From Marivirga harenae (GTDB lineage: Bacteria; Bacteroidota; Bacteroidia; Cytophagales; Cyclobacteriaceae), in the NCBI RefSeq assembly GCF_030534335.1, contig NZ_CP130565.1:317501-381500 (forward strand): DNA of 64,000 nucleotides. The letters are read 5' to 3'. The notes below the pieces were generated by a model. The model saw only the letters and a program-made list of their open reading frames with translations, was not told the DNA's origin and made no database searches. A program made the translations under genes and the position numbers. Positions 6,142-53,015 of this stretch are shown one piece after another (positions within the stretch are counted from its first letter, which is position 1; every line of letters begins with the position of its first letter).

Positions 6142-6172
6142 CAGCTAGCAATTCGTTAAAATATGTATCTGA

Positions 6173-26271: not shown

Positions 26272-27165
26272 TTATTTGTCTTTGGCTTTAGCATGATCCG
26301 CAGGCTCCATTTTCCCATAATGATAATCAGAATACACTTTAGTGAACTCCGCTCCAAAGAAGACAATCATTGCAGAATAGGAAGTCCATAACAAAATCAA
26401 CACTACTGAACTGGCAGGCCCGTAGCCCGCTCCGGGATCAGCTGTACCAAAATAGAATCCCAAAGCAAATTCGCCTAAAACGAAGAGTAATGCGGTCATG
26501 AATGCCCCAATCCACACTGTACGCCATTGCACTTTTGCGTCTGGCAACACCTTTAGCAAAAGGGCAAATAGTAAAGTAATCACCCCAAGCGAAACCAGCA
26601 CGTTTAAAATCTTAACAATAAAAAGTAAGGCCTCGGAGAAATATTGTTCTATCCAAGTTCCAAAAGCTGACAATAAAGAGGAAAGGAGTAAAAAAACCAA
26701 CAACAAAAATCCGATTGATAAGATAACACCAAAAGAAAATAATCTTGTCCTGATGAACGGCCATACACCTGCCTTTTGTTTATCGCCTTCCACTTCCCAG
26801 ATTTCATTAAAAGACCTTTGCAACTGTGCAAAAACAGTAGTAGCCCCTATCAAGATGGTACCAAAACCAATAATACTGGCAAAAGTAGAATCTTCCGTCT
26901 CCAGAGATCTTTTCAGCAAAGCTTGAACAGAATCTGCTGTATTTTCTCCTATGGCATCAGAGATTTGGCGGTGCAGTTCTCCACTAACTACTTCATCCCC
27001 GAAAATGTAGCCTGCAATAGTTATAGAAACTACCAGTAAACCCGGGAGGGCAAAAATAGAATAATAAGCTATAATTGGGCCTTGTCTAAAGGGCTCTTTC
27101 GATATCCACTTTTTAGCTGTTTCTTTAATTAATTTCCAGAATGTCTGTAGATTTTTAATACCCAT
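26272..27165 (-). CDS. YihY/BrkB-family inner-membrane protein
   Basis: A 297-residue protein with about six membrane helices (for example ISFAL-like segment at residues 32-55, VILSIGFLLLVFLLLSSLLS, VLVSLGVITLLFALLLKVLP, AFMTALLFVLGEFALGFYFG). The family phrases PIIAYYSIFALPGLLVVSI, FAQLQRSFNEIWEVE and SSVVLILLWTSYSAMIVFFGAEFT are present (quoted in part). Its members are integral membrane proteins of uncertain function, once misnamed RNase BN. It stands alone. Confidence 0.85.
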   Translation of the reverse strand: MGIKNLQTFWKLIKETAKKWISKEPFRQGPIIAYYSIFALPGLLVVSITIAGYIFGDEVVSGELHRQISDAIGENTADSVQALLKRSLETEDSTFASIIGFGTILIGATTVFAQLQRSFNEIWEVEGDKQKAGVWPFIRTRLFSFGVILSIGFLLLVFLLLSSLLSAFGTWIEQYFSEALLFIVKILNVLVSLGVITLLFALLLKVLPDAKVQWRTVWIGAFMTALLFVLGEFALGFYFGTADPGAGYGPASSVVLILLWTSYSAMIVFFGAEFTKVYSDYHYGKMEPADHAKAKDK

Positions 27166-27633
27166 TTACAATTATTTAATGAAAAATTTTATTGAACGTT
27201 AATCTTTATTATTGATTAAACTTCGGGTCTCAAAAAGAGATAACTAACTGTTTTACAATGGCATTAGAGAAAATGTATATCGAAATCAAAACAGTTACAA
27301 TATATTACCAAAACCGAATTTTTCATAAATAGTTACAAATCTCTCCTATCAAATCATTTTTGACTTTATGAATTACAACTCGTTTGCTATTCTTTCAAAC
27401 TGGCCTAAAGATAAAAAAACAGGTATTAGCCAGCCCAAGACTTCTAGAGCATTGTGGAATTGAAAAAATAAGAATTTCCAATGAAGTATGACAATTGATT
27501 TGTGATGAAAGCAATCTGAATGAACAGCACGTAAAAAATGATTTTTTGAAAGTTAAGAGCAACCTTTAACTTATGGTAGAAATTTTCAAGTGATGCCATA
27601 GGTGTAACAAAAATGTCACGGGACCAAACTACT
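27166..27633. other. Intergenic region without recognised gene
   Basis: The 468 bases between the YihY-family gene and the terminator of the oligopeptidase gene are AT-rich. The only open frame is a 25-codon one starting with ATG at 27369, with no features. No RNA gene or repeat was seen. Confidence 0.5.
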
Positions 27634-27669
27634 TAAAAAAAAAGACCTGAAAAGTATTTTCTCAGGTCT
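27634..27669 (-). terminator. Terminator of the prolyl oligopeptidase gene
   Basis: On the minus strand AGACCTGA and TCAGGTCT pair around a loop of 11 bases and are followed by nine T. It begins 27 bases after the stop codon at 27697. Confidence 0.88.
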
Positions 27670-27696
27670 CCTAATTGGCAATCTAGTCAATTTCAA

Positions 27697-29832
27697 CTAC
27701 ATTTCCTCATCCATAGGAACCACCCCCATATTATACCAGGCAAAAGAATACTTATCCGCTATATCATCTATAATTTTATCCGTTGGTTTTCCAGCTCCAT
27801 GTCCGGCATTGGTTTCAATTCTAATTAAAACAGGACTTTCACCGGCATGTTTTTCCTGCAATTCCGCAGCAAATTTGAATGAATGAGCCGGCACTACCCT
27901 ATCGTCATGATCGGCTGTGGTAACCATAGTAGCTGGATATTTCACGCCTGCTTTCACATTGTGAACCGGAGAGTAGCCTTTCAAGTACTCAAACATTTCT
28001 TTGCTATCTTCTGAGGTTCCATAGTCATAAGCCCAGCCTGCGCCTGCCGTAAAAGTGTGATATCTTAACATATCCATTACCCCTACAGCCGGGAAGGCTA
28101 CTTGCATTAAATCAGGACGCTGGGTTATAGTAGCCCCTACTAGTAAACCACCATTAGAACCACCGGAAATGGCCAGTTTATCAGAACTAGTATAGCCTTC
28201 GGCAATAAGATACTCAGCAGCTGCAATGAAATCGTCAAACACATTTTGCTTTTGCATTTTAGTACCGGCTTTGTGCCATTCTTCTCCATATTCTCCACCG
28301 CCTCTTAAGTTGGGCTGTGCGTAAATTCCGCCTTCTTCCAACCATACCAATCGGGCAACACTAAAACTTGGACGCAAACTCACATTGAATCCCCCATAAG
28401 CATAAAGCTCCGTTGGATTTTTACCATTTTTCTCCATTCCTTTTTTGTAGGTAATGAACATTGGGATTTTAGTGCCGTCCTTGCTTTCGTAAAATACTTG
28501 CTCGGTTTCGTAATCTTCTGGATTGAAATCTATTTCTGGTTTCCAATACAATTCAGAAGTTCCTTTTTCAATATCATATTCAAAAATGGCTGAAGGATAA
28601 GTGAAGGATGTAAAGCTGTAATATAGTTTTTCATCTTCCTTTTCAGCGCCAAAACCACCGGCAGAACCAAGGCCCGGTAATTCTACCTGACGAACTTTAT
28701 TGCCTTCATAATCAAATTGATGGATTTCGGTCTTTACATCTACCATATAATTGGCAAAAATGTAACCACCTGCAGTGCTGACGTTCAATACATTTTCCGT
28801 TTCCGGGATGACATCTTTATAATTTTCGGTAGAAGGATCATTGGCATCCACCTCAACCAATCTTTTGTTGGGTGCATTCAAATTGGTTTCAATCAGTAAT
28901 CTATCACCATCATTATCCAAAACTGAGTGTTCGCTCTCAAAACCTTCGGCAATCGGAACAATTGGATTACTCCAGTCTGATAAATCCTTCACGTATAATT
29001 CATTTCCGCTTGTACTCACAGAGGCAGAAATAAAGAGGAATTTTTCATCATCACTTACATATCCGCCAATGTAGCGTCTTGGGGTTTCGCTTCCGCCAAA
29101 TATCAATTCATCTTCAGATTGAGGTGTGTTGAGTTTGTGATAATATAGTTTATGTTCCTGAGTTTTAGCTGAAAGCTCACTTCCTTCTGGTTTGTCATAA
29201 CTGCTGTAGAAAAAACCTTCATTTCCTTTCCATGAAACACCACTAAATTTCACATTGCGAATAGTATCTTCCACAATGGATTTATCTTCCGCATTCATGA
29301 CGATCACTTTTCTCCAATCAGAACCGCCTTCAGAAATGGAATAAGCCAAAAGGCTTCCATCTTTGGTAAAAAAAGTGCCTGCCAATGAAGTGGTAGCATC
29401 CTCAGAAAAGGTATTGGGATCAAGGAATACGCTTTCCGCACCATCTAAGCCTTTTTTTCGGTAAACTACCCATTGATTTTGCAAACCATCATTTTTGTAA
29501 GTGTAATAATAATCACCATGCTTTCTTGGGGCACTTTCCTTGGCATAATTCCAAAGTTCAGTTAAGCGCTCTTCAATTTTATCACGGAATGGAATATTAT
29601 TCAAATAGCCGAAAGTGACTTCATTTTGTGCCTTTACCCATTCTGCTGTTTGCTCAGAGCGATCGTCCTCCAGCCAACGGTAAGGATCAGGCACATCTGT
29701 ACCAAAATAAGTATCCACAGTATCTACTTTAGCTGTTTCAGGATAATCTTTTATCTCCATTTTCTGATTTTTTTCACCACTATTGCATGCAAAGAATGCC
29801 AAAGCAAGTGGAAAAGCCCATATTTTGTTCAT
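27697..29832 (-). CDS. Prolyl oligopeptidase family serine peptidase (S9), lipoprotein
   Basis: A 711-residue enzyme with a lipoprotein signal (ALAFFACNSGEKN, Cys about residue 16), so it is anchored in the envelope. A seven-bladed beta-propeller precedes the alpha/beta-hydrolase domain. Catalytic residues are the Ser in AISGGSNGG, the Asp in TADHDDRVVP and the His in NAGHGAGKP, in the standard order. It cleaves proline-containing short peptides after Pro. Length fits classic prolyl endopeptidases. It is transcribed alone and adds to the peptide-scavenging theme of the window. Confidence 0.93.
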   Translation of the reverse strand: MNKIWAFPLALAFFACNSGEKNQKMEIKDYPETAKVDTVDTYFGTDVPDPYRWLEDDRSEQTAEWVKAQNEVTFGYLNNIPFRDKIEERLTELWNYAKESAPRKHGDYYYTYKNDGLQNQWVVYRKKGLDGAESVFLDPNTFSEDATTSLAGTFFTKDGSLLAYSISEGGSDWRKVIVMNAEDKSIVEDTIRNVKFSGVSWKGNEGFFYSSYDKPEGSELSAKTQEHKLYYHKLNTPQSEDELIFGGSETPRRYIGGYVSDDEKFLFISASVSTSGNELYVKDLSDWSNPIVPIAEGFESEHSVLDNDGDRLLIETNLNAPNKRLVEVDANDPSTENYKDVIPETENVLNVSTAGGYIFANYMVDVKTEIHQFDYEGNKVRQVELPGLGSAGGFGAEKEDEKLYYSFTSFTYPSAIFEYDIEKGTSELYWKPEIDFNPEDYETEQVFYESKDGTKIPMFITYKKGMEKNGKNPTELYAYGGFNVSLRPSFSVARLVWLEEGGIYAQPNLRGGGEYGEEWHKAGTKMQKQNVFDDFIAAAEYLIAEGYTSSDKLAISGGSNGGLLVGATITQRPDLMQVAFPAVGVMDMLRYHTFTAGAGWAYDYGTSEDSKEMFEYLKGYSPVHNVKAGVKYPATMVTTADHDDRVVPAHSFKFAAELQEKHAGESPVLIRIETNAGHGAGKPTDKIIDDIADKYSFAWYNMGVVPMDEEM

Positions 29833-30243
29833 AGTTATAGCATTAAAATTTCACCTAAAATAAGGGCTTTTGTGGAGAAAAGCATGTGATTTATAAAAAC
29901 GGTGGATGTTGGGGATGGTGGGTTAAAATAGGAAGGTCCTTTTTATAGACAAAGCAGGCCTAATATGTAAGAATAAAAATCATGAATTGTAATTTTAATC
30001 TGGTATTTAAGAAAAGTAAGAGTCCATCATTTGAGTTTAGCTTAAATTTTAAAAGAAAAATTTTTAAAATTACTCGATATCTCTACTCCAAAAAAGGAAT
30101 TTTACCTAGTCAGTATTTTAGTAGATACATATTGAGGCTATTCATTGTACGAAGGTCACTCAAAGCACTTTTAACTCCATAGAAATCAAACAAGCTCATT
30201 TTTCAAACCCGAAGCACCTTAATTCATTTAGCATGAATGTTAA
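29833..30243. other. Intergenic region before the duplicated cassette
   Basis: These 411 bases contain one 66-codon frame (29982-30182, plus strand) with a Lys/Phe/Ile-rich composition typical of untranslated AT-rich DNA, so I do not call it a gene. From about 30165 onward the sequence resembles 33673-33760, marking the outer edge of the tandem duplication. Confidence 0.5.
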
Positions 30244-30273
30244 ATAGACGCCAGCTTTGGAACTGGCGCTCTA
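30244..30273 (-). terminator. Hairpin after the first cassette copy
   Basis: CGCCAG and CTGGCG pair around the loop CTTTGGAA, extended by outer ATAG/CTAT arms. It lies 19 bases past the stop of the lipoprotein gene. A close copy ends the second cassette at 33761. It has no strong T-tract, so it may be an intergenic repeat or weak terminator. Confidence 0.5.
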
Positions 30274-30291
30274 TATTCTTACACAATGAAT

Positions 30292-31296
30292 TTAATACGA
30301 TTCTATTTTTTTGAACAACCAGCTTTGCTCGTGATTCGTGCCCTGATCCCAAGTTAATCTTAATTCATCATCAATGACTTCTGCCGAAGGGGCAATGATC
30401 CCAATAGATCCATAATCGTATTGAACATTTCTATTAGGATCTATTAAATCAATATACGAAAAATCAACAGTACCCAACTCTCCCTTATTACCTGCATGCG
30501 ACCATTTCCCTGTATAGGCAAAATTCTCTTCAAAGTCTTTATACTTTTCCACACAAGCTTCTTGTGAGGCAGCGGAATCAACAATCTGATATTTCTTTTT
30601 GAAAGAGTTACGATAATCACCATTTTCCGAAAATTCTAGGAAGTAGTCATCGAAAGGAATTTGATATGATGTTTCTAAACTATTTCCGTCCTGACAGTCT
30701 ATTGATACATCTACCCATTCACCTAGATCATTAATTGGAATCTCCTCATCAATATTAAAAAATACTTTGTCTAACTTCCATTTCCCGGTAATAGAGTTCG
30801 TACCTCCCCAATCTCTTACTTCAACACATATTTCTTTTTTTTGACTTACACCCTGATTGCTGTAAACTGCCAAATCAAAGCAAAAAGACCCCTTAGTTAC
30901 TACCTCTTCAAAAACACCATCAATAATAACGTGCAATTGATTATCTACAGCTAAGTTGAAATGATTATCTACTTTATTTCCGTCTAAATCTTTTAACTGA
31001 ATAAGAATCCCATTGACGGACTCAAAGGCGAAATTTAATTCTACTCTAAATCCAGTGTTTAAAAAACCGCTAATGGATTCACTAATCTCAAAATCAAAAT
31101 TCTCAGTCGATGGAGGAATGTCTCCATTATTTATTTCAGCGTTTTTAATAAAAATTCCGGACTCAATATCAACTAAATTTATGGCTGGACCATTATCTTG
31201 CACTGGTCCTTCCCCTATCCTCTCCTCCTGGCATGAAATCAACATGAAAAGAAAACAAAACATTGCAATTGTGAATAAAGTATACTTAGCACTCAT
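30292..31296 (-). CDS. Lipoprotein with lipocalin-like C-terminal domain, cassette copy A
   Basis: A 334-residue protein with a lipoprotein signal (FLFMLISCQEERIGEG). The first half contains GFLNTGFRVELNF and IQLKDLDGNKVDNHFNLAVD, and the second half starts SITGKWKLDKVFF and ends in TGKWSHAGNKGELGTVDFSY, resembling the Bacteroidota lipocalin-like pattern GxWxL. It is a diverged paralogue of the 307-residue protein at 33815-34738, to which it has an extra Cys-containing stretch near residues 205-225 and 250-262. It is the last gene of its cassette. Function is unknown; surface display is likely from the signal. Confidence 0.7.
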   Translation of the reverse strand: MSAKYTLFTIAMFCFLFMLISCQEERIGEGPVQDNGPAINLVDIESGIFIKNAEINNGDIPPSTENFDFEISESISGFLNTGFRVELNFAFESVNGILIQLKDLDGNKVDNHFNLAVDNQLHVIIDGVFEEVVTKGSFCFDLAVYSNQGVSQKKEICVEVRDWGGTNSITGKWKLDKVFFNIDEEIPINDLGEWVDVSIDCQDGNSLETSYQIPFDDYFLEFSENGDYRNSFKKKYQIVDSAASQEACVEKYKDFEENFAYTGKWSHAGNKGELGTVDFSYIDLIDPNRNVQYDYGSIGIIAPSAEVIDDELRLTWDQGTNHEQSWLFKKIESY

Positions 31297-31331
31297 TTTC
31301 TATTATTTAGGTTATAAACTTATTAGAATAA

Positions 31332-31531
31332 AAGTAAATCAAGTTTCATGCCAAAGACAATAATGATCATCTGCAACGAGCGGTTTATTGCGACATTATC
31401 AAGGTTTAATTATAAAAGTGAAAAATTGATCTAGTAAAATGCCTAGGGAAAATATTTTACTTACAACGGATCGAAGATTTAAGTGTAATTCAAAATCCAG
31501 TAATCTCACACTTCACAATCGCCAGATTATC
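31332..31531. repeat. 200-bp direct repeat, copy A (perfectly identical to 34774-34973)
   Basis: Base-by-base reading shows 200 identical bases at an offset of 3442. The block covers the leader of the lipoprotein gene, the spacer and the last 14 codons or so of the propeller gene. It contains an 8-base inverted repeat, AGTAAAAT (31433) and ATTTTACT (31454). Genes on both sides of it have diverged, so the block was either copied recently or is under constraint. Confidence 0.95.
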
Positions 31532-32686
31532 TCCATCTTTAAAATTTTCAATTTTTGATAGTAGTCTTTGGTTCAGCTCACTTTTTGATGAATTTGTAAC
31601 TAGCGTTTTCCCAAAGTTTTCATTTTGTGCTTCTAAGCTTACAATAAAATAAATATCGTTACCATCCATGGCTACCGGTCTATATTGGTAGCCGATTTTT
31701 TCATCGGTTTTCAAACCGAAAACATCATTACTGATCTTATCAAAAACAGTTGATTCCCCTGTTTTAGTGTTGGTATAGAAATGAAAATTTTGCTCATTCT
31801 TCCTAACTGAAGCAAATAGTAGATTTTCTTCTAATAGAAAATTTCCTAGACCGTAGGCATATCCACTTTTGGCCATATCTTGGCTAAATTCTCTAACATC
31901 CTGATAAGAATTTTCAAACAATTCGGCCGGAATGTTATCTTGACCAAAATCAAGATATAAAGAATCTTTAACCGCATCTTCACCCAATTCATAAACGTAC
32001 TGATTGTAAACCTGATAGAAACTGGATGGATTCTTGGAGAAATTTCTCGGCTCTATAAAAAGCATAAATCCTGCCTTTTGCTCATCAAAAGGAATATAGC
32101 TGGACTTTACCTTTCCTTCATTTTTATTCCAAATTTGCATTTGATAACCTGACTTTCCAGCATAGAAATTGCCACCGAAAAGGAAATAGTGCTCTCCATC
32201 TATACTAAGAAGGCTTGTCACTTGTTGTAATTTTTCATTTTGATATACAGAAAGTAACTCACCTTCCATATTATAGGTTAAAATTTTTCGTGACTGTCCA
32301 TCGAGCAGCTCAATCTGCCCTTTCTTATTAATGAAAAAATTATTTAGCTTTTGATATTGATTGGACCCTTCTCCTTTAGCCGATATAATAAACTCTTTAG
32401 CTGTAAGCGTATTTTTAATGACAAGATAATCTAATCCCCAACCACAATGAAGCACTACATAATCATTATGAGTGGAAACTTTCATTAAATTATCCACCAC
32501 CAAACTATCAGAAAAATAAATGACATCTTTCAACTTAAAATGATCGCTTACTTTTAAGGTTTGGGCTTTGTCTAAGTTGATTTTGATTGTTTCATCTTGT
32601 GATTTTTCTTTACTCTCATTGTTTGTACAAGAAATAAGAAATACACTAAAAATTGATAAAATAATAATACTACTCGCTAATTTCAT
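31490..32686 (-). CDS. 6-bladed beta-propeller lipoprotein, cassette copy A
   Basis: A 398-residue lipoprotein (signal SVFLISCTNNESK). The segments ISAKGEGSNQYQKLNNFFIN and IELLDGQSRKILTYNMEGEL are the pattern of the Bacteroidota 6-bladed beta-propeller family, in which a blade reads GeGPgqf...i.v.D....kI..Y...G. The second half (NKNEGKVKSSYIPFDEQKAG; FDKISNDVFGLKTDEKIG) is almost identical to its paralogue at 34932-36128, while the first half is diverged. It follows the DUF1028 pseudogene on the transcript. It probably acts as a surface-exposed binding protein; no ligand is known. Confidence 0.75.
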   Translation of the reverse strand: MKLASSIIILSIFSVFLISCTNNESKEKSQDETIKINLDKAQTLKVSDHFKLKDVIYFSDSLVVDNLMKVSTHNDYVVLHCGWGLDYLVIKNTLTAKEFIISAKGEGSNQYQKLNNFFINKKGQIELLDGQSRKILTYNMEGELLSVYQNEKLQQVTSLLSIDGEHYFLFGGNFYAGKSGYQMQIWNKNEGKVKSSYIPFDEQKAGFMLFIEPRNFSKNPSSFYQVYNQYVYELGEDAVKDSLYLDFGQDNIPAELFENSYQDVREFSQDMAKSGYAYGLGNFLLEENLLFASVRKNEQNFHFYTNTKTGESTVFDKISNDVFGLKTDEKIGYQYRPVAMDGNDIYFIVSLEAQNENFGKTLVTNSSKSELNQRLLSKIENFKDGDNLAIVKCEITGF

Positions 32687-32716
32687 AAAGAGATTTAATT
32701 TGGGTTGAATATAATT

Positions 32717-33672
32717 TTATTTCAATAATTTTTTTAATTCTTGCTCCTCCACTTCCAACAAGCCAACCTTGGGTAATCTTTTCGTCAAATCTCGCCAATT
32801 CGCGTCTTGCTTATAAATCTTTTGAAGCATTTTTACTGCCTGATCTGTTTTGCCGTCATTTGCTAAGGTGATAGCGGTCCAATATTATATTTCAAGGTTT
32901 TCCGGGAACTTTTTCCATGGCCGCATTATATTGGTTCATTGCTTCTTGCATTTTACCCTTTTCCACAAAATAATCGCCTTGGTTCATGTGCTCATAGGCT
33001 CTATAAACTTTCACCAATCTGTTTAATTCCAGACCTGGATTTTGATGATCATCTACTCTTAAATCCAATACTCTATCATTCCAAGGTTCATTTGAAGCTT
33101 CTGCTTTTACCACCAAAAGTGCAGCAGATTGCTTTCCTCTGATATCTCCGCCCTGAGCTTGTGCGGCATCCAATACTTTGACCATACGCTCTGCCAAAGC
33201 CAAATCACTGTGTTTTTTCCAAGCTACTTCCATGGCAGGAACCACGGTTTCGTTCAGCATCATATTGGCTTGTACTGAAAAGTTATCGCCATTGGCATGA
33301 CCTGCTTCGTCTATACATTTCGCTCCTGTATGTGTGGCTACTCTTCCTTTGACATCTAAAATTGCGACTTGTCTGAAAGCTTTTCCATCGTCATTGTTCA
33401 ACAAACTGTCCATTGCTTCTTGAGGACTTAATCCTGCTTTGAGCATGGCCAAGCCTCTTAAGCCAAATGATTTATTGGTGAAAGATTGTGTGGCCACAAC
33501 CCCCACACCGGCTTCTCCCCAGGAAACAGCTGTTCCAACGCTGAACCAATGGCTCTGTACGGCTACTGCCATTTCACCAGTTTTAGCGTCTCTTGCTACT
33601 ATGGAATAGGTATGGGCAAGAGGATCGTTTGGTCTATTAAGTTGAGCTAATGAATTGAAACTGAAAAAAGCA
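32717..33672 (-). pseudogene. DUF1028 protein gene, truncated and frameshifted, cassette copy A
   Basis: It aligns with the intact gene at 36160-37143. Three lesions are visible. First, the start codon and first ten or so codons are gone: matching begins inside the signal peptide at AFFSFNSLAQ and stops at 33672. Second, one extra A in the run near 32914 shifts the frame and gives an early stop at 32892. Third, even in the restored frame a Gln codon has become TAA shortly after. The remaining frame (32892-33572) could still give a 226-residue fragment if it started at an internal Met, but it would lack the N-terminus and any signal peptide. Confidence 0.88.
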
Positions 33673-33760
33673 GAACTGCATCCTTAATAATGCGATAGCA
33701 ACCAAAGTCACTTGTTTTTCAAAGCAGAACGCTTTTAATTGATTTAGACACTTACATTAA

Positions 33761-33789
33761 ATGGACACCAGCTTTGGAACTGGCGCCAT
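33761..33789 (-). terminator. Hairpin after the second cassette copy
   Basis: The sequence ACCAGCTTTGGAACTGGCGC is shared with the 30244-30273 element, with ATGG/CCAT outer arms that pair with a bulge. It lies 26 bases past the stop of the 307-residue lipoprotein. As in copy A there is no strong T-tract. Confidence 0.5.
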
Positions 33790-33814
33790 ATTTTCTTTAA
33801 TACTTTAGCTGATA

Positions 33815-34738
33815 CTATTCTATTCTTTTGAAAACAAAGCTTGTCTCATAATTCGTGTCAAAGTTCCTAACTAACCTTAATTCATCATCAAAAACTCGAA
33901 CTGAAGAAATGGTAAAAATAGATCCATAATCGTATTGAATACTACTTTCAGGATTTATTAAATCAATAAAAGAAAAATCAATAGTACCCAACTCTCCTTC
34001 TTTAGCTGCAAACGACCATTTACCCTTGTAGTAATAATTCTCCTCAGAGTCTGAATCTACGATCTGATAATCTTTTTTGAAGTAACGCAGATAATCTCCA
34101 TTTTCCGAAAATTCAAAAAAATAATCAACCCAATCAATTGGAATCTGCTGATCATTGTGATCAAATGCTTTGTCAAATTTCCATATACCAATAATAGATG
34201 ACGTACCTCCCCATTCTCTCACATCAACACGTATTTCTTTTTTTTGACTTACACCCTGACTGCTGTAAACTGCTATATCAAAACTAAAAGACCCCATCCT
34301 AACTACCTCATCAAAAACACCAAAAAATCTACTGCTGCCTTGATCATTTACAGCTAGGTCGAAATGATTATCTACTTTATTTCCATCTAAATCTTTAAAT
34401 TGAATATAATATCCATTAATGGACTCAATTGAAGACACATCTCCTCTAAAGCCAGTATTTAAAAAACCACCTATAAAGCTAGTACTTGAAAAATCGGGTT
34501 TATGTGCAGATCCAATAACGGTAAAATTGAAATTCTTAGTCGCATTAGGAATATTTCCTTCATTTACTTCAGCGTTTTTAATAAATACTCCGGATTTAAT
34601 AACATCTAGACTGATAGAGTTTTCGGTTACAACTTGATTATTGACTGGTTCTTTCTCTATCTTCTCCTCTTTGCAAGAAAGCAGGATAGCAAGACAAAAA
34701 CAAACCGACAGGGTATATAAAGTGAACTTAACTCTCAT
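33815..34738 (-). CDS. Lipoprotein with lipocalin-like C-terminal domain, cassette copy B
   Basis: A 307-residue paralogue of the protein at 30292-31296, with the lipoprotein signal FCLAILLSCKEEKIEKE. Conserved landmarks are GFLNTGFRGDV, QFKDLDGNKVDNHFDLAVND, SSQGVSQKKEIRVDVREWGG and KWSFAAKEGELGTIDFSFID. It is shorter by 27 residues, mostly in the middle of the C-terminal domain. Much lower similarity than between the flanking genes suggests relaxed or diversifying selection on this member. It is the last gene of the upstream, apparently intact cassette. Function unknown. Confidence 0.7.
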   Translation of the reverse strand: MRVKFTLYTLSVCFCLAILLSCKEEKIEKEPVNNQVVTENSISLDVIKSGVFIKNAEVNEGNIPNATKNFNFTVIGSAHKPDFSSTSFIGGFLNTGFRGDVSSIESINGYYIQFKDLDGNKVDNHFDLAVNDQGSSRFFGVFDEVVRMGSFSFDIAVYSSQGVSQKKEIRVDVREWGGTSSIIGIWKFDKAFDHNDQQIPIDWVDYFFEFSENGDYLRYFKKDYQIVDSDSEENYYYKGKWSFAAKEGELGTIDFSFIDLINPESSIQYDYGSIFTISSVRVFDDELRLVRNFDTNYETSFVFKRIE

Positions 34739-34773
34739 TTCTTTTTATTTAGGTTATAAGCTTTTTACAATAT

Positions 34774-34973
34774 AAGTAAATCAAGTTTCATGCCAAAGAC
34801 AATAATGATCATCTGCAACGAGCGGTTTATTGCGACATTATCAAGGTTTAATTATAAAAGTGAAAAATTGATCTAGTAAAATGCCTAGGGAAAATATTTT
34901 ACTTACAACGGATCGAAGATTTAAGTGTAATTCAAAATCCAGTAATCTCACACTTCACAATCGCCAGATTATC
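34774..34973. repeat. 200-bp direct repeat, copy B (perfectly identical to 31332-31531)
   Basis: Second copy of the 200-base block, again spanning the end of the propeller gene, the spacer and the lipoprotein leader. The 8-base inverted repeat is at 34875 and 34896. Confidence 0.95.
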
Positions 34974-36128
34974 CCCCTCTTCAAAGTTTTGAATTCTGGA
35001 TAGCAGTCTTTGGTTAAGATCACTTTTTGATGCGTTGCTCATTAACTCTTCATCTAAGTGTTCATTTTGCGCTTCCATACTGACGAGAAAATAAATATGA
35101 TCACCATCCATGGCAACCGGTCTATATTGGTAGCCGATTTTTTCATCGGTTTTCAAACCGAAAACATCATTACTGATCTTATCAAAAACAGTTGATTCCC
35201 CTGTTTTAGTGTTGGTATAGAAATGAAAATTTTGCTCATTCTTCCTAACTGAAGCAAATAGTAGATTCTCTTCTAATAGAAAATTTCCTAGACCGTAGGC
35301 ATATCCACTTTTGGCCATAGCCTGGCTAAATTCTCTAACATCCTGATATGAATTTTCAAACAATTCGGCCGGAATATTATGTTGACCAAAATCAAGATAT
35401 AAAGAATCTTCTACCGCATCTTCACTCAATTCATAAACATGCTGATTGTAAACCTGATAGAAACTAGCTGGATTTTTGGAGAAATTTCTAGGCTCCATAA
35501 AGAGCATGAAACCCGCTTTTTGCTCATCAAAAGGAATATAGCTGGACTTTACCTTTCCTTCATTTTTATTCCAAATTTGCATTTGATAACCTGACTTTCC
35601 AGCATAGAAATTCCCCCCGTAAATGAAATAATCCTCACCATTTAGGCTTAAGAAACTGCCGGCATTTTGCAGTTTTTCATTTTGATATACTGACAGCAAT
35701 TCACCTTTTAAATTATAGGTTAAGATTTTTCCTGCTTGTCCGTCTAGTAACTCAATCTGCCCTTTATGATTAATGAAGAAATCACTTAGCTTTTGATATT
35801 GATTGGGACCTTCCCCTTTTGCTGATATCGCTACCTCCGCTCCCGTTTTCATGTCCTTTATGAGGAGGTAATCTAAACCCCAACCGCAATGCAAGACCAA
35901 TTTGTCGTTAACTACACTTGATTTTATTAGATGATCAACCACCAAACTATCAGAAAAATAAATGACATCTTTCAACTTAAAATGATCGCTTACTTTTAAG
36001 GTTTGGGCTTTGTCTAAATTGATCTTTATTGAGCGGCTGTCTAATTCTTCTGTTTTCTCGCTTTCTGCACAAGAAAAAACCAAAAGACTTAAAAAAGACC
36101 ATAGTACAATGCTACTTATTAATTTCAT
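34932..36128 (-). CDS. 6-bladed beta-propeller lipoprotein, cassette copy B
   Basis: A 398-residue lipoprotein (signal LLVFSCAESEKT), of the same length as its copy at 31490-32686. It shows the family pattern ISAKGEGPNQYQKLSDFFIN and IELLDGQAGKILTYNLKGEL, closer to the consensus (GEGPNQ) than copy A (GEGSNQ). Long stretches of DNA are identical between copies while others differ, a mosaic. It is 31 bases downstream of the DUF1028 gene. It is likely a surface lipoprotein; a role with the exported hydrolases of the same transcript is inference. Confidence 0.77.
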   Translation of the reverse strand: MKLISSIVLWSFLSLLVFSCAESEKTEELDSRSIKINLDKAQTLKVSDHFKLKDVIYFSDSLVVDHLIKSSVVNDKLVLHCGWGLDYLLIKDMKTGAEVAISAKGEGPNQYQKLSDFFINHKGQIELLDGQAGKILTYNLKGELLSVYQNEKLQNAGSFLSLNGEDYFIYGGNFYAGKSGYQMQIWNKNEGKVKSSYIPFDEQKAGFMLFMEPRNFSKNPASFYQVYNQHVYELSEDAVEDSLYLDFGQHNIPAELFENSYQDVREFSQAMAKSGYAYGLGNFLLEENLLFASVRKNEQNFHFYTNTKTGESTVFDKISNDVFGLKTDEKIGYQYRPVAMDGDHIYFLVSMEAQNEHLDEELMSNASKSDLNQRLLSRIQNFEEGDNLAIVKCEITGF

Positions 36129-36159
36129 AAAGGGCAGTTTATTTTGGTTGAAAACACTT

Positions 36160-37143
36160 TTACTTCAATAGTTTCTTCAATTCATTTTCGTCAACTTCCA
36201 ACAAGCCAACCTTGGGCAATCTTTTAGTCAATTCTCGCCAATTAGCGTCTTGCTTATAAATCTTTTGAAGCATTTTTACTGCCTGATCTGTTTTGCCGTC
36301 ATTTGCTAAGGTTATAGCCGTCCAATATTGCATTTCAAGGTTTTCCGGGAACATTTCCATGGCTGCATTATACTCATTCATGGCCTCTTGCATTTTTCCT
36401 TTTTCCACAAAATAATCGCCTTGGTTCATGTGCTCATAGGCTCTATAAACTTTCAAAAATCTGTTTAATTCCAGAACTGGATTTTGATGATCATCTACTC
36501 TTAGGTCTAATACTCGATCGTTCCATGGTTCATCAGAAGCCTTTGCTTTCACCACCAATAGGGCAGCAGATTGTTTGCCCCTGATATCTCCACCTTGTGC
36601 TTGTGCGGCATCCAATACTTTGACCATACGCTCTGCCAACGGCAAATCACTATTGGCTTTCCAGGCTTCTTCCATAGCAGGAACTACGGTATCATTCAGC
36701 ATCATATTGGCTTGTACTGAAAAGTTATCGCCATTGGCATGACCGGCTTCGTCTATACATTTCGCTCCTGTATGTGTGGCTACTCTTCCTTTGACATCTA
36801 AAATCGCGACTTGTCTGAAAGCTTTTCCATCGTCATTGTTCAACAAACTGTCCATTGCTTCTTGTGGACTTAATCCTGCTTTTAGCATGGCCAAACCCCT
36901 TAAGCCAAATGATTTATTGGTAAAAGATTGTGTGGCCACAACCCCCACTCCAGCTTCTCCCCAGGAAACAGCTGTCCCAACGCTGAACCAATGACTTTGC
37001 ACCGCTACTGCCATTTCACCAGTATTGGCATCTCTTGCTACTATGGAATAGGTATGGGCAAGAGGATCGCTAGGTCTATTGAGTTGAGCTAATGAATTGA
37101 AACTGAAAAAAGCAGCGCAAAGAATTATGAATAGTGGTCTCAT
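36160..37143 (-). CDS. Exported DUF1028 (Ntn-hydrolase-like) protein with C-terminal TPR
   Basis: A 327-residue protein with a signal peptide (CAAFFSFNSLAQ). The DUF1028 domain fills about residues 28-235: HTYSIVARDANTGEMAVAVQ, WGEAGVGVVATQS, GLRGLAMLKAG and KQSAALLVVKA. By structure DUF1028 proteins have the Ntn-hydrolase fold, so an amidohydrolase activity is possible. Instead of the peptidoglycan-binding domain found in some members, residues about 240-310 form TPR-like helices (YEHMNQGDYFVEKGKMQEAM). It starts 6 bases after the proline iminopeptidase-like gene, pointing to a shared transcript. A broken copy lies at 32717-33672. Confidence 0.82.
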   Translation of the reverse strand: MRPLFIILCAAFFSFNSLAQLNRPSDPLAHTYSIVARDANTGEMAVAVQSHWFSVGTAVSWGEAGVGVVATQSFTNKSFGLRGLAMLKAGLSPQEAMDSLLNNDDGKAFRQVAILDVKGRVATHTGAKCIDEAGHANGDNFSVQANMMLNDTVVPAMEEAWKANSDLPLAERMVKVLDAAQAQGGDIRGKQSAALLVVKAKASDEPWNDRVLDLRVDDHQNPVLELNRFLKVYRAYEHMNQGDYFVEKGKMQEAMNEYNAAMEMFPENLEMQYWTAITLANDGKTDQAVKMLQKIYKQDANWRELTKRLPKVGLLEVDENELKKLLK

Positions 37144-37149
37144 GAGTTT

Positions 37150-38088
37150 TTATTTTTGATTGGATAGAAATTCTTTTATGAATCGATTATAATCTTCAGG
37201 GTTATCATTTAAGGTGGAATGACCGGATGCTGGCACGACTTCAAATCTCGAATTGGGCACTAAACTGTTAAAATAATTAATCGTTTCAGGTCTAGCTTCA
37301 TCAAACTCTCCGGTTAAAAACAAAACTGGCACCTCAATTTCGGACAAGCTGGCTGTTCTATCAAAGTCTTTTAAAGTTCCCGTGCATCTAAATTCACTTG
37401 GGCCCCACATATAATTATAAATCACACTATTACCCGATATCTCAACCGTATCCATTGGATGAGATTTCTTTGATGTTCTCAATCCAAATTGACTCCAATA
37501 ATAGGAGTTCGCTTTATCATATTCAGGAGTATTATATTCTCCAGTTCTATTTGCTTCTAGCACTATTTTCTGTAAACTATCAGGTAATTGAGTGACTAAT
37601 GTATCAGCATCTGCTTCCCAACGCGGAGTTGAAATCAAAGGACTAGTGAGAATCAAACCTTCGATCCCTTCTGGGTGATGCATATAATATTCCACCGCCA
37701 AGGCGCCACCCCATGATTGCCCTAGCAAATAAAAATCTTCTAGCTTCAAATGATCTACAACCGCCTTCACTTGATTGACAAAATGATCAACCGTCATGAG
37801 CGTGGTATCATTATGATAATCTGACCTACCACTGCCTAACTGATCAAATAGAATTACTTTTCTATCTTCATTTTGAGGACTTAGTTTATAAAAATAACGA
37901 TGCGTCCCTCCTGGTCCTCCGTGTAAAGTTAAAATCGGAATACCATCTCCATCCCCCATTACTTTATACCAGATATCACCTCCTTCTACTTGAATTTTAC
38001 CTTCGTGAGCAGAAAGTTGATCCTTCGATTCTTTAGTTTGACAACTAATCAATAAAAAAAGTGACAACGCAGCTAAATAGATTTTCAT
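37150..38088 (-). CDS. Proline iminopeptidase-family alpha/beta-hydrolase, lipoprotein
   Basis: A 312-residue enzyme with a lipoprotein signal (LFLLISCQTKESK), so it is in the envelope. Seen are LTLHGGPGGTHRYF (the HGGPG motif of S33 peptidases), FDQLGSGRSD, the nucleophile elbow GQSWGG, the Asp in LTGEFDEARPE and the His in PASGHSTL. Enzymes of this kind release N-terminal proline or other residues from short peptides. It is the first gene of the cassette and is not duplicated; the duplication begins just inside the next gene. Confidence 0.85.
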   Translation of the reverse strand: MKIYLAALSLFLLISCQTKESKDQLSAHEGKIQVEGGDIWYKVMGDGDGIPILTLHGGPGGTHRYFYKLSPQNEDRKVILFDQLGSGRSDYHNDTTLMTVDHFVNQVKAVVDHLKLEDFYLLGQSWGGALAVEYYMHHPEGIEGLILTSPLISTPRWEADADTLVTQLPDSLQKIVLEANRTGEYNTPEYDKANSYYWSQFGLRTSKKSHPMDTVEISGNSVIYNYMWGPSEFRCTGTLKDFDRTASLSEIEVPVLFLTGEFDEARPETINYFNSLVPNSRFEVVPASGHSTLNDNPEDYNRFIKEFLSNQK

Positions 38089-38160
38089 GAAATAGTGATT
38101 TAATTAAATTTCAAATTAATAAATAAATCTTGAAGTATTTAGCTTTTCAAGTTAAGGCAT

Positions 38161-38194
38161 AAAAAAACGCATGAAGCAGAGCTCCATGCGTTTT
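38161..38194 (-). terminator. Terminator of the subtilisin gene
   Basis: AAACGCATG and CATGCGTTT pair around an 11-base loop; on the minus strand the stem is followed by seven T. It begins 25 bases after the stop codon. Confidence 0.88.
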
Positions 38195-38218
38195 CTAATT
38201 CAATTAATCTATCTATAA

Positions 38219-41200
38219 TTATTTCACAATGAAATTCGCACTTACAGCTTCTTTTGCTGTGTTCGCTTTCAAGATATACATTCCTTTTTCTAAAGTAGAA
38301 ACATCAATGCTATTGACATCTTTTCCAGTATTGATTGATTTTACAAGAGCACCATTGCTACTGTAAATCTTAATACCTTTTGAAGAATCGATATTTCTGA
38401 TATTTACATTTAGCTGACCTTGTACCGGATTTGGATACAAGCTAAAGTTTGCAATATTATCTTCTTTACCTAATAGCTCAGAATCGAAATCAGTCATAGC
38501 GTAGTTCGATGGACTATTCGTAATATTTACAGTATAGTCTTCTACTTCACCATAATTAAAGGTCTCACAAGGAGTGCCCTGAGCATTGTATTTCATCGTA
38601 ACTCTCATTCTTGTATTTCCTGTCAAAGCAGTAGATGGAATATTCAATGTAGCGCTCAATAAGTTACTACTACTTGAAGAACCATTAACTAATCTTTCAC
38701 CAGAACTGAAAGTACCATCCTGATTTAAGTCAATCCAAACACTCCAGTATTCAGTATAACTACTACCACTAAATCCGGCTTGAACATTCATAGAAGTCGA
38801 TGTACCACGCTGAACATTTGCAACTTGGTTAGTGAAATCAGCATAACCGCCATTGTCACCACTGGTATTGTCAATTGATCCTAACACAATTCTTTGAATC
38901 CACTCATAACTAGAATCATCTCCACTTGAGTTACAATATGTTATTGCAACCGGAGCGTCTGTCGTGAATAGATCAGAAGAAGAATAGTTAGAATTACTGC
39001 TTGAGCAATTACTTCGTACTTGCCATTCATATTCCGTGTCTGCTGAAAGCCCACTTACACTTCTTGAATTAGAAGAAGCAGATAATGTAGACCATGTGCT
39101 AGTTCCGTTTTCTCTGATTCTAACGGTATAGTCATTGGCAACACTTTCAGAAGACCAGCTCAATGTAGCTGTATTTTCTCCAATGCTTGATACACTTAAG
39201 CTTGAAGGGACAGTACATACTTCAGGAGTACCTGTAGTGATATTTACGGTATAATCTTCTACCTCACCATAAGAGAAAGATTCACAAGAAGTAGGTACTC
39301 CATTGTATTTCATAGAAACTCTCATCGTTGTGTTTCCAGATAGGGCACTGGTAGGTACCGTAAAGCTTCCACTAACTGGAGTGTTTTGCGTTGCAGACTG
39401 CGTCCAAACTTGCTCTCCTGCATCTGTAAAATCGCCATCCTGGTTATAATCAATCCAAACACTATAGCCTTCACTGTAAACTGTTCCAGTCCATTCTGGA
39501 GTTACTGTGATTGTATTAGCATCTCCTTTACCTAAATCAGTAGACTGAGAAGTGAAATCTGCATACCCAGAACCAGCAGCTCCAGACGAATTATCTAAGC
39601 TCGCAAGCTGAACTCTTCCAATATACTCATCAGAAACATTGTTTCCGTTTGAATCACAATATACTAACTGTACCTCTGTAGTTGTAAAGCTTACACTTGA
39701 AGAATAATTAGAGTTACTTCCGTCAGAACACTTGCTTCTTACTTGTGCTTCATATTGCGTAGTAGAACTTAATCCAGATAGAGTAATAGAACTAGATGAA
39801 GTACTTTCAGTTGTCCAAGAAGAAGTTCCTGAAACTCTGTATCGCACATCATAGGTAGTACCTGTTACCGCATCCCAGCTTAAATCAACACTATTTGAAC
39901 CTACGTTCGAAGGTGATAAGCTAGTTGGAGTAGTGGCATCACAAACAACTGGCGTCCCAGAAAGACCAGTTACTACTAATGAGAAATCTTGACTTCCACT
40001 TGCCAAAGATCCTTTGTGAGTTACTGTGATTGTATAAGAACCACTTGCATTATTGATATCAACTCTCTCGTATGGATCAACATTATTATCTCCTTTTGAA
40101 TTGCTATTCACACCAGTTAATCTGTAAGGTGAATATGTAGTAGAATTTTTAGTAACTCTAATATCTAAATCATTCACTAATACTGGAGTGCTAAGGTTTG
40201 TAGTTCCTGTATTTGCAGTACCGCCTTGGTCAGTCCAAGAAATTGAAGCCAATAACGGGCTCGTTCCATCAGATTCAACCGTAACAGAATATGATTGACC
40301 ATTATTCAAGGTCAATTCTTCTACTTTCGATATATCACCAGCACCGGTCATAGTTTCAGCTGCTCTTTTGGCATTCATTAAACCCCATCCCCAAACAGCA
40401 TCCGGACCTGTGATTCCTGCATCATCAGCAGTATGTAAAACAACACCTTTAATTGTGGCTGCTCTCGCATAATTTCCAAATACATTGTTTGCATGTTCTT
40501 GCAAAACTAAAATTGAACCTGCAACATTAGGAGATGCCATTGATGTTCCTGTAATAGAGTTGTAAGCGGTATTACTGCTTTCATAAGTCGAGTAAACACC
40601 AGTTCCATTACCCGTAATATCAGGCTTGATTCTATAATCATCAGTTGGCCCTTCACTTGAAGAACTATTAATGTTAACCCCAATTAAATTTCCATTACTA
40701 TCTACGTTAGCATCTTGCGCATTGGCAACAACCAAGTTATTCTTAGCAGTAGCATGTCCAGATAATTTGTCAAATGAGCTATTGCCACCTAATGGACTAC
40801 CGTTTGAAGAGTTATCGTTTCCATCATTACCGCCTGCAACTACCATCATATAATAAGGAGAATTGTACATCAGATTGTCCCAATCTCTAGACTCAGCTAT
40901 GTATGCACCAAAATACCAATCGGGTAATTGACTGGCTCTATATCCGTACGAGTGGTTGGAGACAAGCATTCCGTTAGAAGCTGCATTTGTAGCTTCCGAA
41001 AGATCACTATTCCAATCATAACCTATTGCATTTGCTTGTGGCGCCATTCCTTTTGCATTTGCTTGAACGCCAGATGCGATAATAGTACCTGTTACGTGCG
41101 CAGCATGAAAGTTCAATGTGCTAGATCCGTCACCTACTGAGAAACGATTAGAACCGCCAGGCCCATCGTATTCTTGGTGAGAAGCACGTGCTAAACCACC

Positions 41201-41596
41201 ATCCCAAACGTGAGCAGTCATATTATCTCCATTTAGGTTTAAACCTAATCCGCCTCCTGAATTCAGGAAATTTGTTCTAGTGGATCGGGCTGCATCAGTA
41301 TTATAAGTAATATAATAAATCGGCTCTCCTGTTGCAGTTACTTTTTGTAGTTCTGCATATCGACCATCGTCAAGATACATCTTTACTTCCCAGCCTTTTT
41401 GTTCAGCCATCGCGATAGCTTCTTCTTTTTCTTTTTGGGCTTTGGCTGAAAAATTTTGTTCGAGCTCCGTCAATACTTGTTTATTATATTGATTCGTGAT
41501 TTTTGCTCTTTGTTGACTTGTCTGACCCATAGCAGTGCTCCCAATAAGGAAACATGCCAAAGCTATGAGGTTTAGTTTTGTAAAAATTGAATTCAT
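38219..41596 (-). CDS. Secreted subtilisin-like serine peptidase (S8) with FN3, GEVED and T9SS sorting domains
   Basis: A 1125-residue protein. A signal peptide (to about residue 24, TAMGQ) and a propeptide-like region are followed by the S8 domain with catalytic D132 (HVWDGG), H167 (HAAHVTG) and S352 (GTSMASPN). The motifs VAGGNDGN and the P-domain-like region to residue 545 follow. Then come two fibronectin type III domains (near 550-640 and 790-880), each followed by a GEVED domain ending GEVEDYTVNI, and a C-terminal type A sorting domain (FSLYPNPVQGQLNVNI) that sends it through the type IX system. It degrades extracellular protein; no regulator is adjacent. Confidence 0.93.
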   Translation of the reverse strand: MNSIFTKLNLIALACFLIGSTAMGQTSQQRAKITNQYNKQVLTELEQNFSAKAQKEKEEAIAMAEQKGWEVKMYLDDGRYAELQKVTATGEPIYYITYNTDAARSTRTNFLNSGGGLGLNLNGDNMTAHVWDGGLARASHQEYDGPGGSNRFSVGDGSSTLNFHAAHVTGTIIASGVQANAKGMAPQANAIGYDWNSDLSEATNAASNGMLVSNHSYGYRASQLPDWYFGAYIAESRDWDNLMYNSPYYMMVVAGGNDGNDNSSNGSPLGGNSSFDKLSGHATAKNNLVVANAQDANVDSNGNLIGVNINSSSSEGPTDDYRIKPDITGNGTGVYSTYESSNTAYNSITGTSMASPNVAGSILVLQEHANNVFGNYARAATIKGVVLHTADDAGITGPDAVWGWGLMNAKRAAETMTGAGDISKVEELTLNNGQSYSVTVESDGTSPLLASISWTDQGGTANTGTTNLSTPVLVNDLDIRVTKNSTTYSPYRLTGVNSNSKGDNNVDPYERVDINNASGSYTITVTHKGSLASGSQDFSLVVTGLSGTPVVCDATTPTSLSPSNVGSNSVDLSWDAVTGTTYDVRYRVSGTSSWTTESTSSSSITLSGLSSTTQYEAQVRSKCSDGSNSNYSSSVSFTTTEVQLVYCDSNGNNVSDEYIGRVQLASLDNSSGAAGSGYADFTSQSTDLGKGDANTITVTPEWTGTVYSEGYSVWIDYNQDGDFTDAGEQVWTQSATQNTPVSGSFTVPTSALSGNTTMRVSMKYNGVPTSCESFSYGEVEDYTVNITTGTPEVCTVPSSLSVSSIGENTATLSWSSESVANDYTVRIRENGTSTWSTLSASSNSRSVSGLSADTEYEWQVRSNCSSSNSNYSSSDLFTTDAPVAITYCNSSGDDSSYEWIQRIVLGSIDNTSGDNGGYADFTNQVANVQRGTSTSMNVQAGFSGSSYTEYWSVWIDLNQDGTFSSGERLVNGSSSSSNLLSATLNIPSTALTGNTRMRVTMKYNAQGTPCETFNYGEVEDYTVNITNSPSNYAMTDFDSELLGKEDNIANFSLYPNPVQGQLNVNIRNIDSSKGIKIYSSNGALVKSINTGKDVNSIDVSTLEKGMYILKANTAKEAVSANFIVK

Positions 41597-42222
41597 TGTA
41601 TTTAGGTTTAGTGAAAAATATGTCGAGTATTGGTTCGACTTTAAAAAAAATTATAATTATTCTAACACTTACTGTTCAACCAGCCATGTCATCTAAAGTG
41701 ATAATCTTCTAAAAACATAATTTTAGGGTTAGACATACCATTTGAAATACATGTAAGTACATTGAATTTAAATGATATTTTTTGAGAAAGGTAAAGGACG
41801 TTTTTAAATAGCTCTTCAATATTATCCTTAAACATCTTAAAGTAGGTTTTGGTCAATTATGCGGTTAATTATCTTCATTTAACCACAATTATAAGAATTT
41901 TATTCTGAAAAAATAAATATAAAACAAATAAATATTTTGAAATGGAAACTGAAAACCCATGCACTTTTTATAAAATAAAGCTTAAAATCAACCTAAATGG
42001 AAATTCTACTAGATGTAATAAATTTATTTTATTTAAATATTTAATCAAGTTATTTTAACGGAAAAGTTATATTATAAGACAGAAAACTCAAGTAAACTAA
42101 ACCATTATAAATTTGCACATTTCTAATATATTGTACTTCACACCTATTTAAACTGGCTATCCACGGTTACATATGATATAAAATGATTATTTTCCATTGT
42201 TCAAATAAATCTTACGCAACCT
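41597..42222. other. Divergent intergenic region between the subtilisin and the beta-lactamase-fold gene
   Basis: These 626 bases are very AT-rich with no gene seen. Two weak symmetries are present: GTCGA/TCGAC arms at 41622-41639 in the subtilisin leader, and TGCGGTTAA/TTAACCACA arms (8 of 9 pairs) at 41860-41887. A -7 element for the plus-strand gene is at 42108. Confidence 0.5.
42108..42115 (+). promoter_or_regulatory. Candidate -7 element for the serine hydrolase gene
   Basis: TAAATTTG matches TAnnTTTG exactly, 107 bases before the ATG at 42223. No clear TTTG is at the -33 spacing. Confidence 0.3.
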
Positions 42223-52293: not shown

Positions 52294-52379
52294 CAACATC
52301 ACTAGTATATGATCGTATTGAAAGGAAATAAGTATTTAAAATCAAATAATAAATTTTAACAATAATTAAATATTAGAAT

Positions 52380-53015
52380 ATGTCTTTAGTAGGAAAAAAA
52401 GCACCAGCATTTAAATCAGGAGCAGTTATTAATGGAGAAGAAATCGTAGAAGATTTTTCTTTAGAGCAGTACATCGGTCAAAAAGATGTGATGTTCTTCT
52501 TTTATCCTAAAGATTTCACTTTCGTATGCCCAACAGAGATATTGGCGTTCCAAGAGAAATTAGCTGAGTTCGAAAAAAGAGGTGTGGCGGTAATCGGTGC
52601 ATCTACTGACACTGAAGAAACCCACTTAGCTTGGTTATTGACTCCGCAAGAAAACGGTGGAATCGAAGGTGTTACTTATCCATTAGTTGCAGATGCTTCT
52701 AAAACTATTGCCAATAATTTTGGCGTTTTAGCTGGTGACTGGAACTATAATGAAGAAGGTGATTTAATCTTCGAAGGAACTCCTGTAGCTTATAGAGGAA
52801 CTTTCTTGATTGATAAAGAAGGAATTGTTCGTCATGAAACTATCAATGACCTTCCATTAGGTAGAAATATCGATGAGATGTTAAGAGTTGTTGATGCATG
52901 GCAACATGTTGAGAAGTTTGGAGAGGTTTGTCCTGCAAACTGGGAAGAAGGAAAAGAAGCGATGGAAGAATCAAGAGAAAGCGTTTCTTCTTACTTAGCT
53001 AAAAACAAGAAATAG
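52380..53015 (+). CDS. Typical 2-Cys peroxiredoxin (AhpC/TSA family)
   Basis: A 211-residue cytosolic enzyme. The peroxidatic Cys50 is in DFTFVCPTE and the resolving Cys184 in GEVCPANW, with RGTFLIDKEG between them. It reduces hydrogen peroxide and organic peroxides with electrons from thioredoxin or AhpF-like partners; no such partner gene is adjacent. It is about 20 residues longer than E. coli AhpC and closer in length to the Prx1/AhpC2 type. It is transcribed alone, with a long leader and a strong terminator. Confidence 0.93.
   Translation: MSLVGKKAPAFKSGAVINGEEIVEDFSLEQYIGQKDVMFFFYPKDFTFVCPTEILAFQEKLAEFEKRGVAVIGASTDTEETHLAWLLTPQENGGIEGVTYPLVADASKTIANNFGVLAGDWNYNEEGDLIFEGTPVAYRGTFLIDKEGIVRHETINDLPLGRNIDEMLRVVDAWQHVEKFGEVCPANWEEGKEAMEESRESVSSYLAKNKK

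What the first reader, a model, noticed from the sequence alone, without database searches (positions are those of the whole stretch)
30165..37125. 3.4-kb tandem duplication of a secreted DUF1028/propeller/lipoprotein cassette with a readable junction
Three genes plus their downstream hairpin occur twice in direct order at an offset of about 3.44 kb. The copy at 32717-33672 lacks its start because the duplication junction (33672) falls inside the signal peptide codons of DUF1028, and the DNA right after the junction resembles the DNA past the end of copy A (about 30165-30200). This shows unit boundaries and polarity: copy B is parental. The proline iminopeptidase-like gene heading the transcript was not duplicated.
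Basis: seen in the sequence. Interest (0 to 1): 0.62.

Follow-up and report, generated by a model that had tools for sequence, protein, structure and literature searches.

The report
Mosaic tandem gene cassette in Marivirga
A marine bacterium carries the same three-gene block twice in a row, but the second block, whose first gene is dead, is a patchwork partly matching a sister species rather than a plain copy of the first, so the pair seems to have been built by recombination between species and between the copies.

Summary
The repeat is real. On the minus strand of an unnamed Marivirga chromosome, DUF1028, a propeller lipoprotein, a second lipoprotein and a hairpin occur twice (A 30.19-33.673 kb, B 33.71-37.115 kb; main offset 3442). 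Copy A's DUF1028 is dead: no start, a +1 frameshift, a TAA. The nine other genus genomes held have at most one DUF1028 and no such lipoprotein. "B is parental" fails as descent: against M. sericea's single copy, affinities fall into 6 blocks (1 in each of 60 permutations; 1 block in two flanking genes). A's DUF1028 is nearest M. sericea (dS 0.065; A-B 0.384), although 42 ortholog pairs around the locus have median pS 0.71. Other tracts are A-B identical, including 200 exact bases, 158 noncoding. So the array is a mosaic of between-species exchange plus conversion between copies, in a slot whose genes also differ between two close relatives. A homologously anchored, illegitimately closed insertion, as proposed for orphan immunity-gene arrays, most likely made it; that step and its direction are inferred. 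Known kind of process; modest interest.

The parts
37150..38088 (-). Proline iminopeptidase-family lipoprotein, single copy, upstream of copy B
   Evidence: TIGR01250 268.3 bits, cut-off 167.65; pS 0.242 to M. sericea, lowest of 42 ortholog pairs
36160..37143 (-). Copy B: full-length secreted DUF1028 + TPR protein (327 aa)
   Evidence: PF06267 E 6.5e-72; 2imh_A E 3.3e-21
34932..36128 (-). Copy B: propeller lipoprotein (398 aa)
   Evidence: DUF5128 E 1.5e-19
33815..34738 (-). Copy B: second lipoprotein (307 aa), no Pfam/NCBIfam family
   Evidence: among 10 genus genomes found only in this one
33764..33787 (-). Copy B: terminator-like hairpin
   Evidence: z -4.04
33674..33711 (.). Junction stretch between the end of B and truncated DUF1028-A; origin unclear
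   Evidence: not significantly like the DNA past copy A (89 of 1000 shuffles as good)
32717..33673 (-). Copy A: DUF1028 pseudogene (start missing, +1 frameshift, TAA)
32576..33673 (-). M. sericea-like tract of copy A (over 32576-33639: 1028 of 1063 columns identical to M. sericea, 935 of 1063 to B)
31490..32686 (-). Copy A: open propeller lipoprotein gene (398 aa), mosaic
32171..32537 (-). Tract where B, not A, groups with M. sericea; within it A groups with G005 at about 32398-32503 (34 sites against 4 joining A with M. sericea)
31674..31825 (-). 152-nt exact A-B identity inside the propeller (conversion-like tract)
   Evidence: A-B dS 0.04 for codons 281-320
31332..31531 (-). 200-nt exact A-B identity, 158 nt of it noncoding (conversion-like tract)
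   Evidence: 31332-31480 folds no better than shuffles; 31300-31500 matches only this genome among 10
30292..31296 (-). Copy A: second lipoprotein (334 aa), 60% identical to copy B's
   Evidence: A-B dN/dS 0.44
30249..30268 (-). Copy A: terminator-like hairpin
   Evidence: z -4.74
27697..29832 (-). Prolyl oligopeptidase lipoprotein, downstream flank
   Evidence: pS 0.512 to M. sericea
38219..41596 (-). Secreted S8 subtilase with C-terminal sorting domain, upstream flank near background divergence
   Evidence: pS 0.607

Best explanation
The locus is a two-unit mosaic array, not one unit plus its copy. Shown: the second unit has lost the start of its DUF1028, the units' affinities to M. sericea switch in blocks, part of unit A is far closer to M. 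sericea than the general divergence of the two genomes around the locus, and other tracts are identical between A and B. Inferred mechanism: incoming DNA from a related Marivirga recombined homologously on one side (the iminopeptidase/DUF1028 stretch is the likely anchor, because divergence from M. sericea drops at the S8/iminopeptidase border) and was joined illegitimately on the other, inside the signal-peptide codons of the resident DUF1028. That puts a complete cassette upstream and leaves the older cassette behind it without its DUF1028 start. Later allele imports and conversion between the copies blurred the tracts. DUF1028-A decayed because one working copy sits upstream; the A propeller and lipoprotein stayed open. 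Product roles (cell-envelope peptide handling beside S8, iminopeptidase and prolyl oligopeptidase genes) are inferred from neighbours only.
For: Six affinity blocks in 388 variable columns of A/B/M. sericea vs 1 in each of 60 permutations, while the single-copy flanks S8 (first 700 of 1040 variable columns) and iminopeptidase (314) give one block each in the trio G000/M. sericea/G005; trees by block differ (A+sericea 96.8/97 and 90.5/88, B+sericea 91.5/91; A+B in the last block only 68.2/69); dS DUF_A-sericea 0.065, DUF_B-sericea 0.345, A-B 0.384, iminopeptidase 0.292, POP 0.861, S8 1.242; 42 ortholog pairs around the locus, median pS 0.71, the two lowest being the iminopeptidase 0.242 and DUF1028-B 0.276; synonymous sites of these genes are not constrained in general, since against G005 pS is 0.72-0.79; 200- and 152-nt exact A-B tracts with 72-79% identity on at least one side; G005 and G009 are 96.6-99.8% identical in the ten 1-kb windows 3623000-3632999 but 85-92% in iminopeptidase, DUF1028 and POP, with different genes in the slot.
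Against: No single-copy parent with the lipoprotein was found, so the direction (A resident and B newcomer, or the reverse) is not shown. No one-event scheme predicts all six blocks; the lipoproteins differ (60% aa) although the DNA just upstream is identical. The plain runs test is not specific: it is significant (0 of 10000) for all four trios tried, also those with one copy and G005, and the B/M. sericea/G005 trio gives 2 blocks, so uneven conservation contributes to clustering. Junction microhomology could not be read because the parental sequence past the hairpin is unknown. The G005-G009 comparison is patchy elsewhere too (83-94% windows beyond 3634000, and 13 kb unaligned on the POP side within the stretches fetched), so divergent segments are not unique to this locus.
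Confidence: 0.55

Rival explanations
1. Old tandem duplication in an ancestor of several Marivirga species, lost in the sampled relatives, with allele exchange and conversion acting on both copies afterwards.
For: A-B distance in the less converted parts of the propeller (dS 0.99 in codons 1-40, 1.83 in codons 81-160) is as large as between-species distances; the lipoproteins are strongly diverged (60%).
Against: No sampled relative keeps two copies; DUF1028-A has few lesions for an old pseudogene (dN 0.008 to M. sericea). It still needs between-species exchange for the dS of 0.065.
Confidence: 0.25
2. Recent within-genome tandem duplication of B giving A, then point mutation.
For: Collinear repeat, one sharp junction, A 5'-truncated, long exact tracts.
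Against: Of 361 two-against-one sites only 107 join A with B; 150 join A with M. sericea and 104 B with M. sericea, in blocks. Tree conflict.
Confidence: 0.08
3. The two-unit array was assembled in another, unsampled Marivirga and transferred whole.
For: Iminopeptidase and DUF1028-B share one reduced divergence level (dS 0.29 and 0.35).
Against: Divergence to M. sericea differs sharply between A, B and flanks, so one donor at one time is not enough.
Confidence: 0.1

Closest known systems
T6SS effector-immunity and Rhs orphan arrays made by displacement (Vibrio cholerae model, PMC5361080; passages read)
   Same: Conserved 5' anchor, complete module in front, older module behind with its leading gene lost or shortened and trailing genes kept; homology-facilitated illegitimate recombination is proposed there as a putative mechanism.
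   Different: Cargo here is a DUF1028 protein and lipoproteins with no sign of toxin or immunity; homologous cassettes (85% nt) rather than unrelated modules; only two units; conversion between them.
Gene conversion between tandem paralogues (general knowledge)
   Same: Near-identical tracts with sharp edges beside diverged ones.
   Different: Here mixed with exchange with another species.
Mosaic alleles from interspecies recombination (e.g. Neisseria mtr, PMC6083905; search listing only)
   Same: Blocks of a gene resemble a sister species.
   Different: Involves a duplicated locus and a pseudogene; no resistance or selection shown.

Membership tests
Simple within-genome tandem duplication | Direct collinear repeat with one novel junction | tested here: met
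Simple within-genome tandem duplication | The copies are each other's closest relatives along the whole unit | tested here: not met
   (testable only where M. sericea has a homologue: DUF1028 and propeller, not the lipoprotein)
Homology-facilitated illegitimate insertion (displacement array) | 5'-truncated leading gene behind a complete module | tested here: met
Homology-facilitated illegitimate insertion (displacement array) | Foreign sequence affinity in a unit | tested here: met
   which side gave is not shown
Homology-facilitated illegitimate insertion (displacement array) | Identifiable anchor crossover and junction microhomology | tested here: inconclusive
   divergence drops at the S8/iminopeptidase border (82.4% to 93.6% nt); junction stretch not resolved
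Gene conversion between copies | Near-zero synonymous/noncoding divergence in tracts bounded by diverged sequence | tested here: met
DUF1028 (PF06267) | Profile match above the gathering score | tested here: met
   B 241.8 bits, A (internal ORF) 209.9 bits vs 26.2
DUF5128 six-bladed propeller (PF17170) | Profile match above the gathering score | tested here: met
   propeller B 70.8 bits vs 22.9; propeller A, 81% identical, gave no hit at E 0.001
DUF5128 six-bladed propeller (PF17170) | Six-bladed propeller fold | tested here: inconclusive
   AlphaFold model too poor to use (mean pLDDT 46.5)

The most novel reading that the evidence does not exclude
The interval between DUF1028 and the prolyl oligopeptidase in Marivirga is a cassette-accretion slot that works like orphan-immunity arrays but with envelope lipoproteins as cargo: new cassettes enter at a conserved 5' anchor, push the older one downstream, kill its leading gene, and keep its propeller-lipoprotein pair as selected surface variants.
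Probability: 0.25. Interest if true: 0.5.

Novelty: new member of a known kind. Interest (0 to 1): 0.32.

Why it matters
It is a readable intermediate in which a tandem array, a fresh pseudogene, sister-species alleles and between-copy conversion all sit in 7 kb. It cautions that a truncated second copy with a sharp junction need not descend from the intact neighbour, and suggests that displacement arrays may form outside toxin loci.

Tried and rejected
Rfam over 27000-42000 at gathering scores: no family. The 200-nt identical stretch as a structured RNA: 31332-31480 folds no better than shuffles (z +1.13) and 31300-31500 matches only this genome among 10 genus genomes, so identity by conversion is preferred. 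Defence-system profiles: none for five proteins at E 0.01. Bacteroidota-type promoter pattern (recalled consensus): none, strict or relaxed, on the minus strand of 29900-38400, and none strict on the plus strand of 27001-42000. AlphaFold of the propeller was poor, so no fold search was made with it; the lipoprotein model (mean pLDDT 59.7) gave only generic Ig/FN3-like and fimbrial beta-sandwich matches (query TM at most 0.25 among the 50 rows shown), so no function is claimed. Lipoprotein relatives in 295 family genomes (own included): weak matches in 3 genomes of one other genus. Propeller profile in 291 order genomes: 23 with a match, own included, a widespread family. Assembly artefact rejected: the copies differ by about 15% and the genome is one contig. 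A first runs test included a tail where M. sericea is not homologous; it was replaced. Papers: the word DUF1028 is in 0 papers of the library.
Full report
Observation. The window lies in a single-contig genome of 4,373,458 bases. Self-comparison shows one direct repeat on the minus strand: copy A about 30.19-33.673 kb and copy B about 33.71-37.115 kb. Each unit holds a DUF1028+TPR protein, a propeller lipoprotein, a second lipoprotein and a hairpin. Copy A's DUF1028 has no start, a +1 frameshift and a further TAA. The propeller and lipoprotein of A are open. Neither the iminopeptidase nor the prolyl oligopeptidase is repeated at the locus.

Relatives. In the 59 genomes (own included) only this one has two DUF1028-domain places at E 0.001; second matches in three others cover only the TPR part. 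In 80 loci (the best 80 of 187 found) each has one within the stretch held. Of the nine other genus genomes, eight have one DUF1028 and G004 none (two of the nine, G001 and G007, are under 90% complete). A propeller lies next to it in five, two of these cut by a contig end; the second lipoprotein is in none of the nine. In M. sericea the propeller is followed directly by the prolyl oligopeptidase.

Mosaic. In a three-way alignment of A, B and M. sericea over the homologous part, 361 two-against-one sites split 150 A+sericea, 104 B+sericea, 107 A+B, in 144 runs (permutation mean 238, 0 of 10000 as low). The same test is also significant for the three trios that include G005, so clustering alone is not proof. 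Penalised segmentation is more telling: six blocks against one in each of 60 permutations. As controls, the trios with G005 give 5 (A/B), 3 (A/M. sericea) and 2 (B/M. sericea) blocks, and the flanking S8 (first 700 of 1040 variable columns) and iminopeptidase give one block each for G000/M. sericea/G005. The blocks: A is sericea-like from 33639 to 32576 (1028/1063, against 935/1063 to B); B is the sericea-like one from 32537 to 32171 (314/367, against 263/367 for A), and inside it A goes with G005 (32503-32398; 34 sites A+G005, 8 sericea+G005, 4 A+sericea); A and B are identical at 32154-32080 (75/75) and nearly so at 31805-31661 (144/145); 32075-31826 and 31660-31500 are mixed. Trees by block: A with M. 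sericea in DUF1028 (96.8/97) and around the propeller start (90.5/88), B with M. sericea in the next block (91.5/91), A with B near-identical further on but with weak support (68.2/69).

Synonymous change. DUF_A-sericea dS 0.065; DUF_B-sericea 0.345; DUF_A-DUF_B 0.384; iminopeptidase 0.292; POP 0.861; S8 1.242. Forty-two ortholog pairs around the locus have median pS 0.71; the two lowest are the iminopeptidase (0.242) and DUF1028-B (0.276); DUF1028-A is at 0.062. These genes are not slow at synonymous sites in general: against G005 they stand at 0.72-0.79. The DUF1028/iminopeptidase stretch has therefore most likely been exchanged between the two lineages after they split, A more recently than B or from a closer source. 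Which lineage gave and which received is not shown.

Conversion between copies. A 200-nt exact A-B match (31332-31531), 158 nt of it noncoding, and a 152-nt exact match (31674-31825) lie beside stretches of about 72-79% identity on at least one side. Protein-level constraint does not explain this, since synonymous change vanishes too (codons 281-320 dS 0.04; codons 81-160 dS 1.83).

A variable slot. G009 has the contig length of the M. arenosa ABR2-2 chromosome. G005 is a near relative; its length (4,022,893) fits M. arenosa BKB1-2 (4.02 Mbp; PMC11225308, passages read), for which that paper gives 97.8% ANI to ABR2-2, but the identification rests on length alone, and a collection with one genome per species should not hold both if they are one species. 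The two are 97.5% identical in S8 (3294/3378) but 85% in the iminopeptidase (796/933), 90% in DUF1028 (851 of 942 aligned) and 92% in POP (1335 of the 1448 bases held), and the interval holds a propeller and other genes in one, an ABC-transporter-like gene and others in the other (named by eye). The wider comparison is also patchy (other 83-94% windows, and 13 kb unaligned on the POP side within the stretches fetched), so this locus is one of several variable places.

Mechanism. A complete cassette in front and an older one behind that has lost the 5' end of its leading gene is the shape proposed for orphan immunity-gene arrays through a process akin to homology-facilitated illegitimate recombination (PMC5361080, passages read). 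The drop in divergence at the S8/iminopeptidase border (82.4% to 93.6% nt) fits an anchor there. The direction and the junction chemistry are not shown: the last 38 nt before the junction match the DNA past copy A no better than 89 of 1000 shuffles. Later imports and conversion are needed in any scheme. Of the three A-B gene pairs the lipoproteins have the highest dN/dS (0.44; propellers 0.21; DUF1028 0.065), none above 1.

Verdict. Modest interest.

Noticed in passing
window 52380-53015: Another gene unusually close to M. sericea (pS 0.434; 88.7% nt over 52348-53011) amid more diverged neighbours; a possible second exchanged segment.
   Followed up: no
L024 1552-2271 and L025 (reversed) 6120-6839: Two small lipoprotein genes nearly identical between G005 and G009 (343/348 and 331/336) sit amid otherwise different gene sets in the DUF1028-POP slot.
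   Followed up: partly
L126, L127: Distant relatives of the second lipoprotein occur in another genus of the family beside a ROK-kinase-like gene (name by eye), with no DUF1028 looked for there.
   Followed up: no
window 31490-32686: Propeller A gives no Pfam hit at E 0.001 although 81% identical to propeller B, which scores 70.8 bits; perhaps a search-filter effect.
   Followed up: no
L049-L059: Marivirga DUF1028 is about as close to that of Aequorivita and allied flavobacterial records (70-75%) as to that of Cytophagales-type records, hinting at wider transfer.
   Followed up: no
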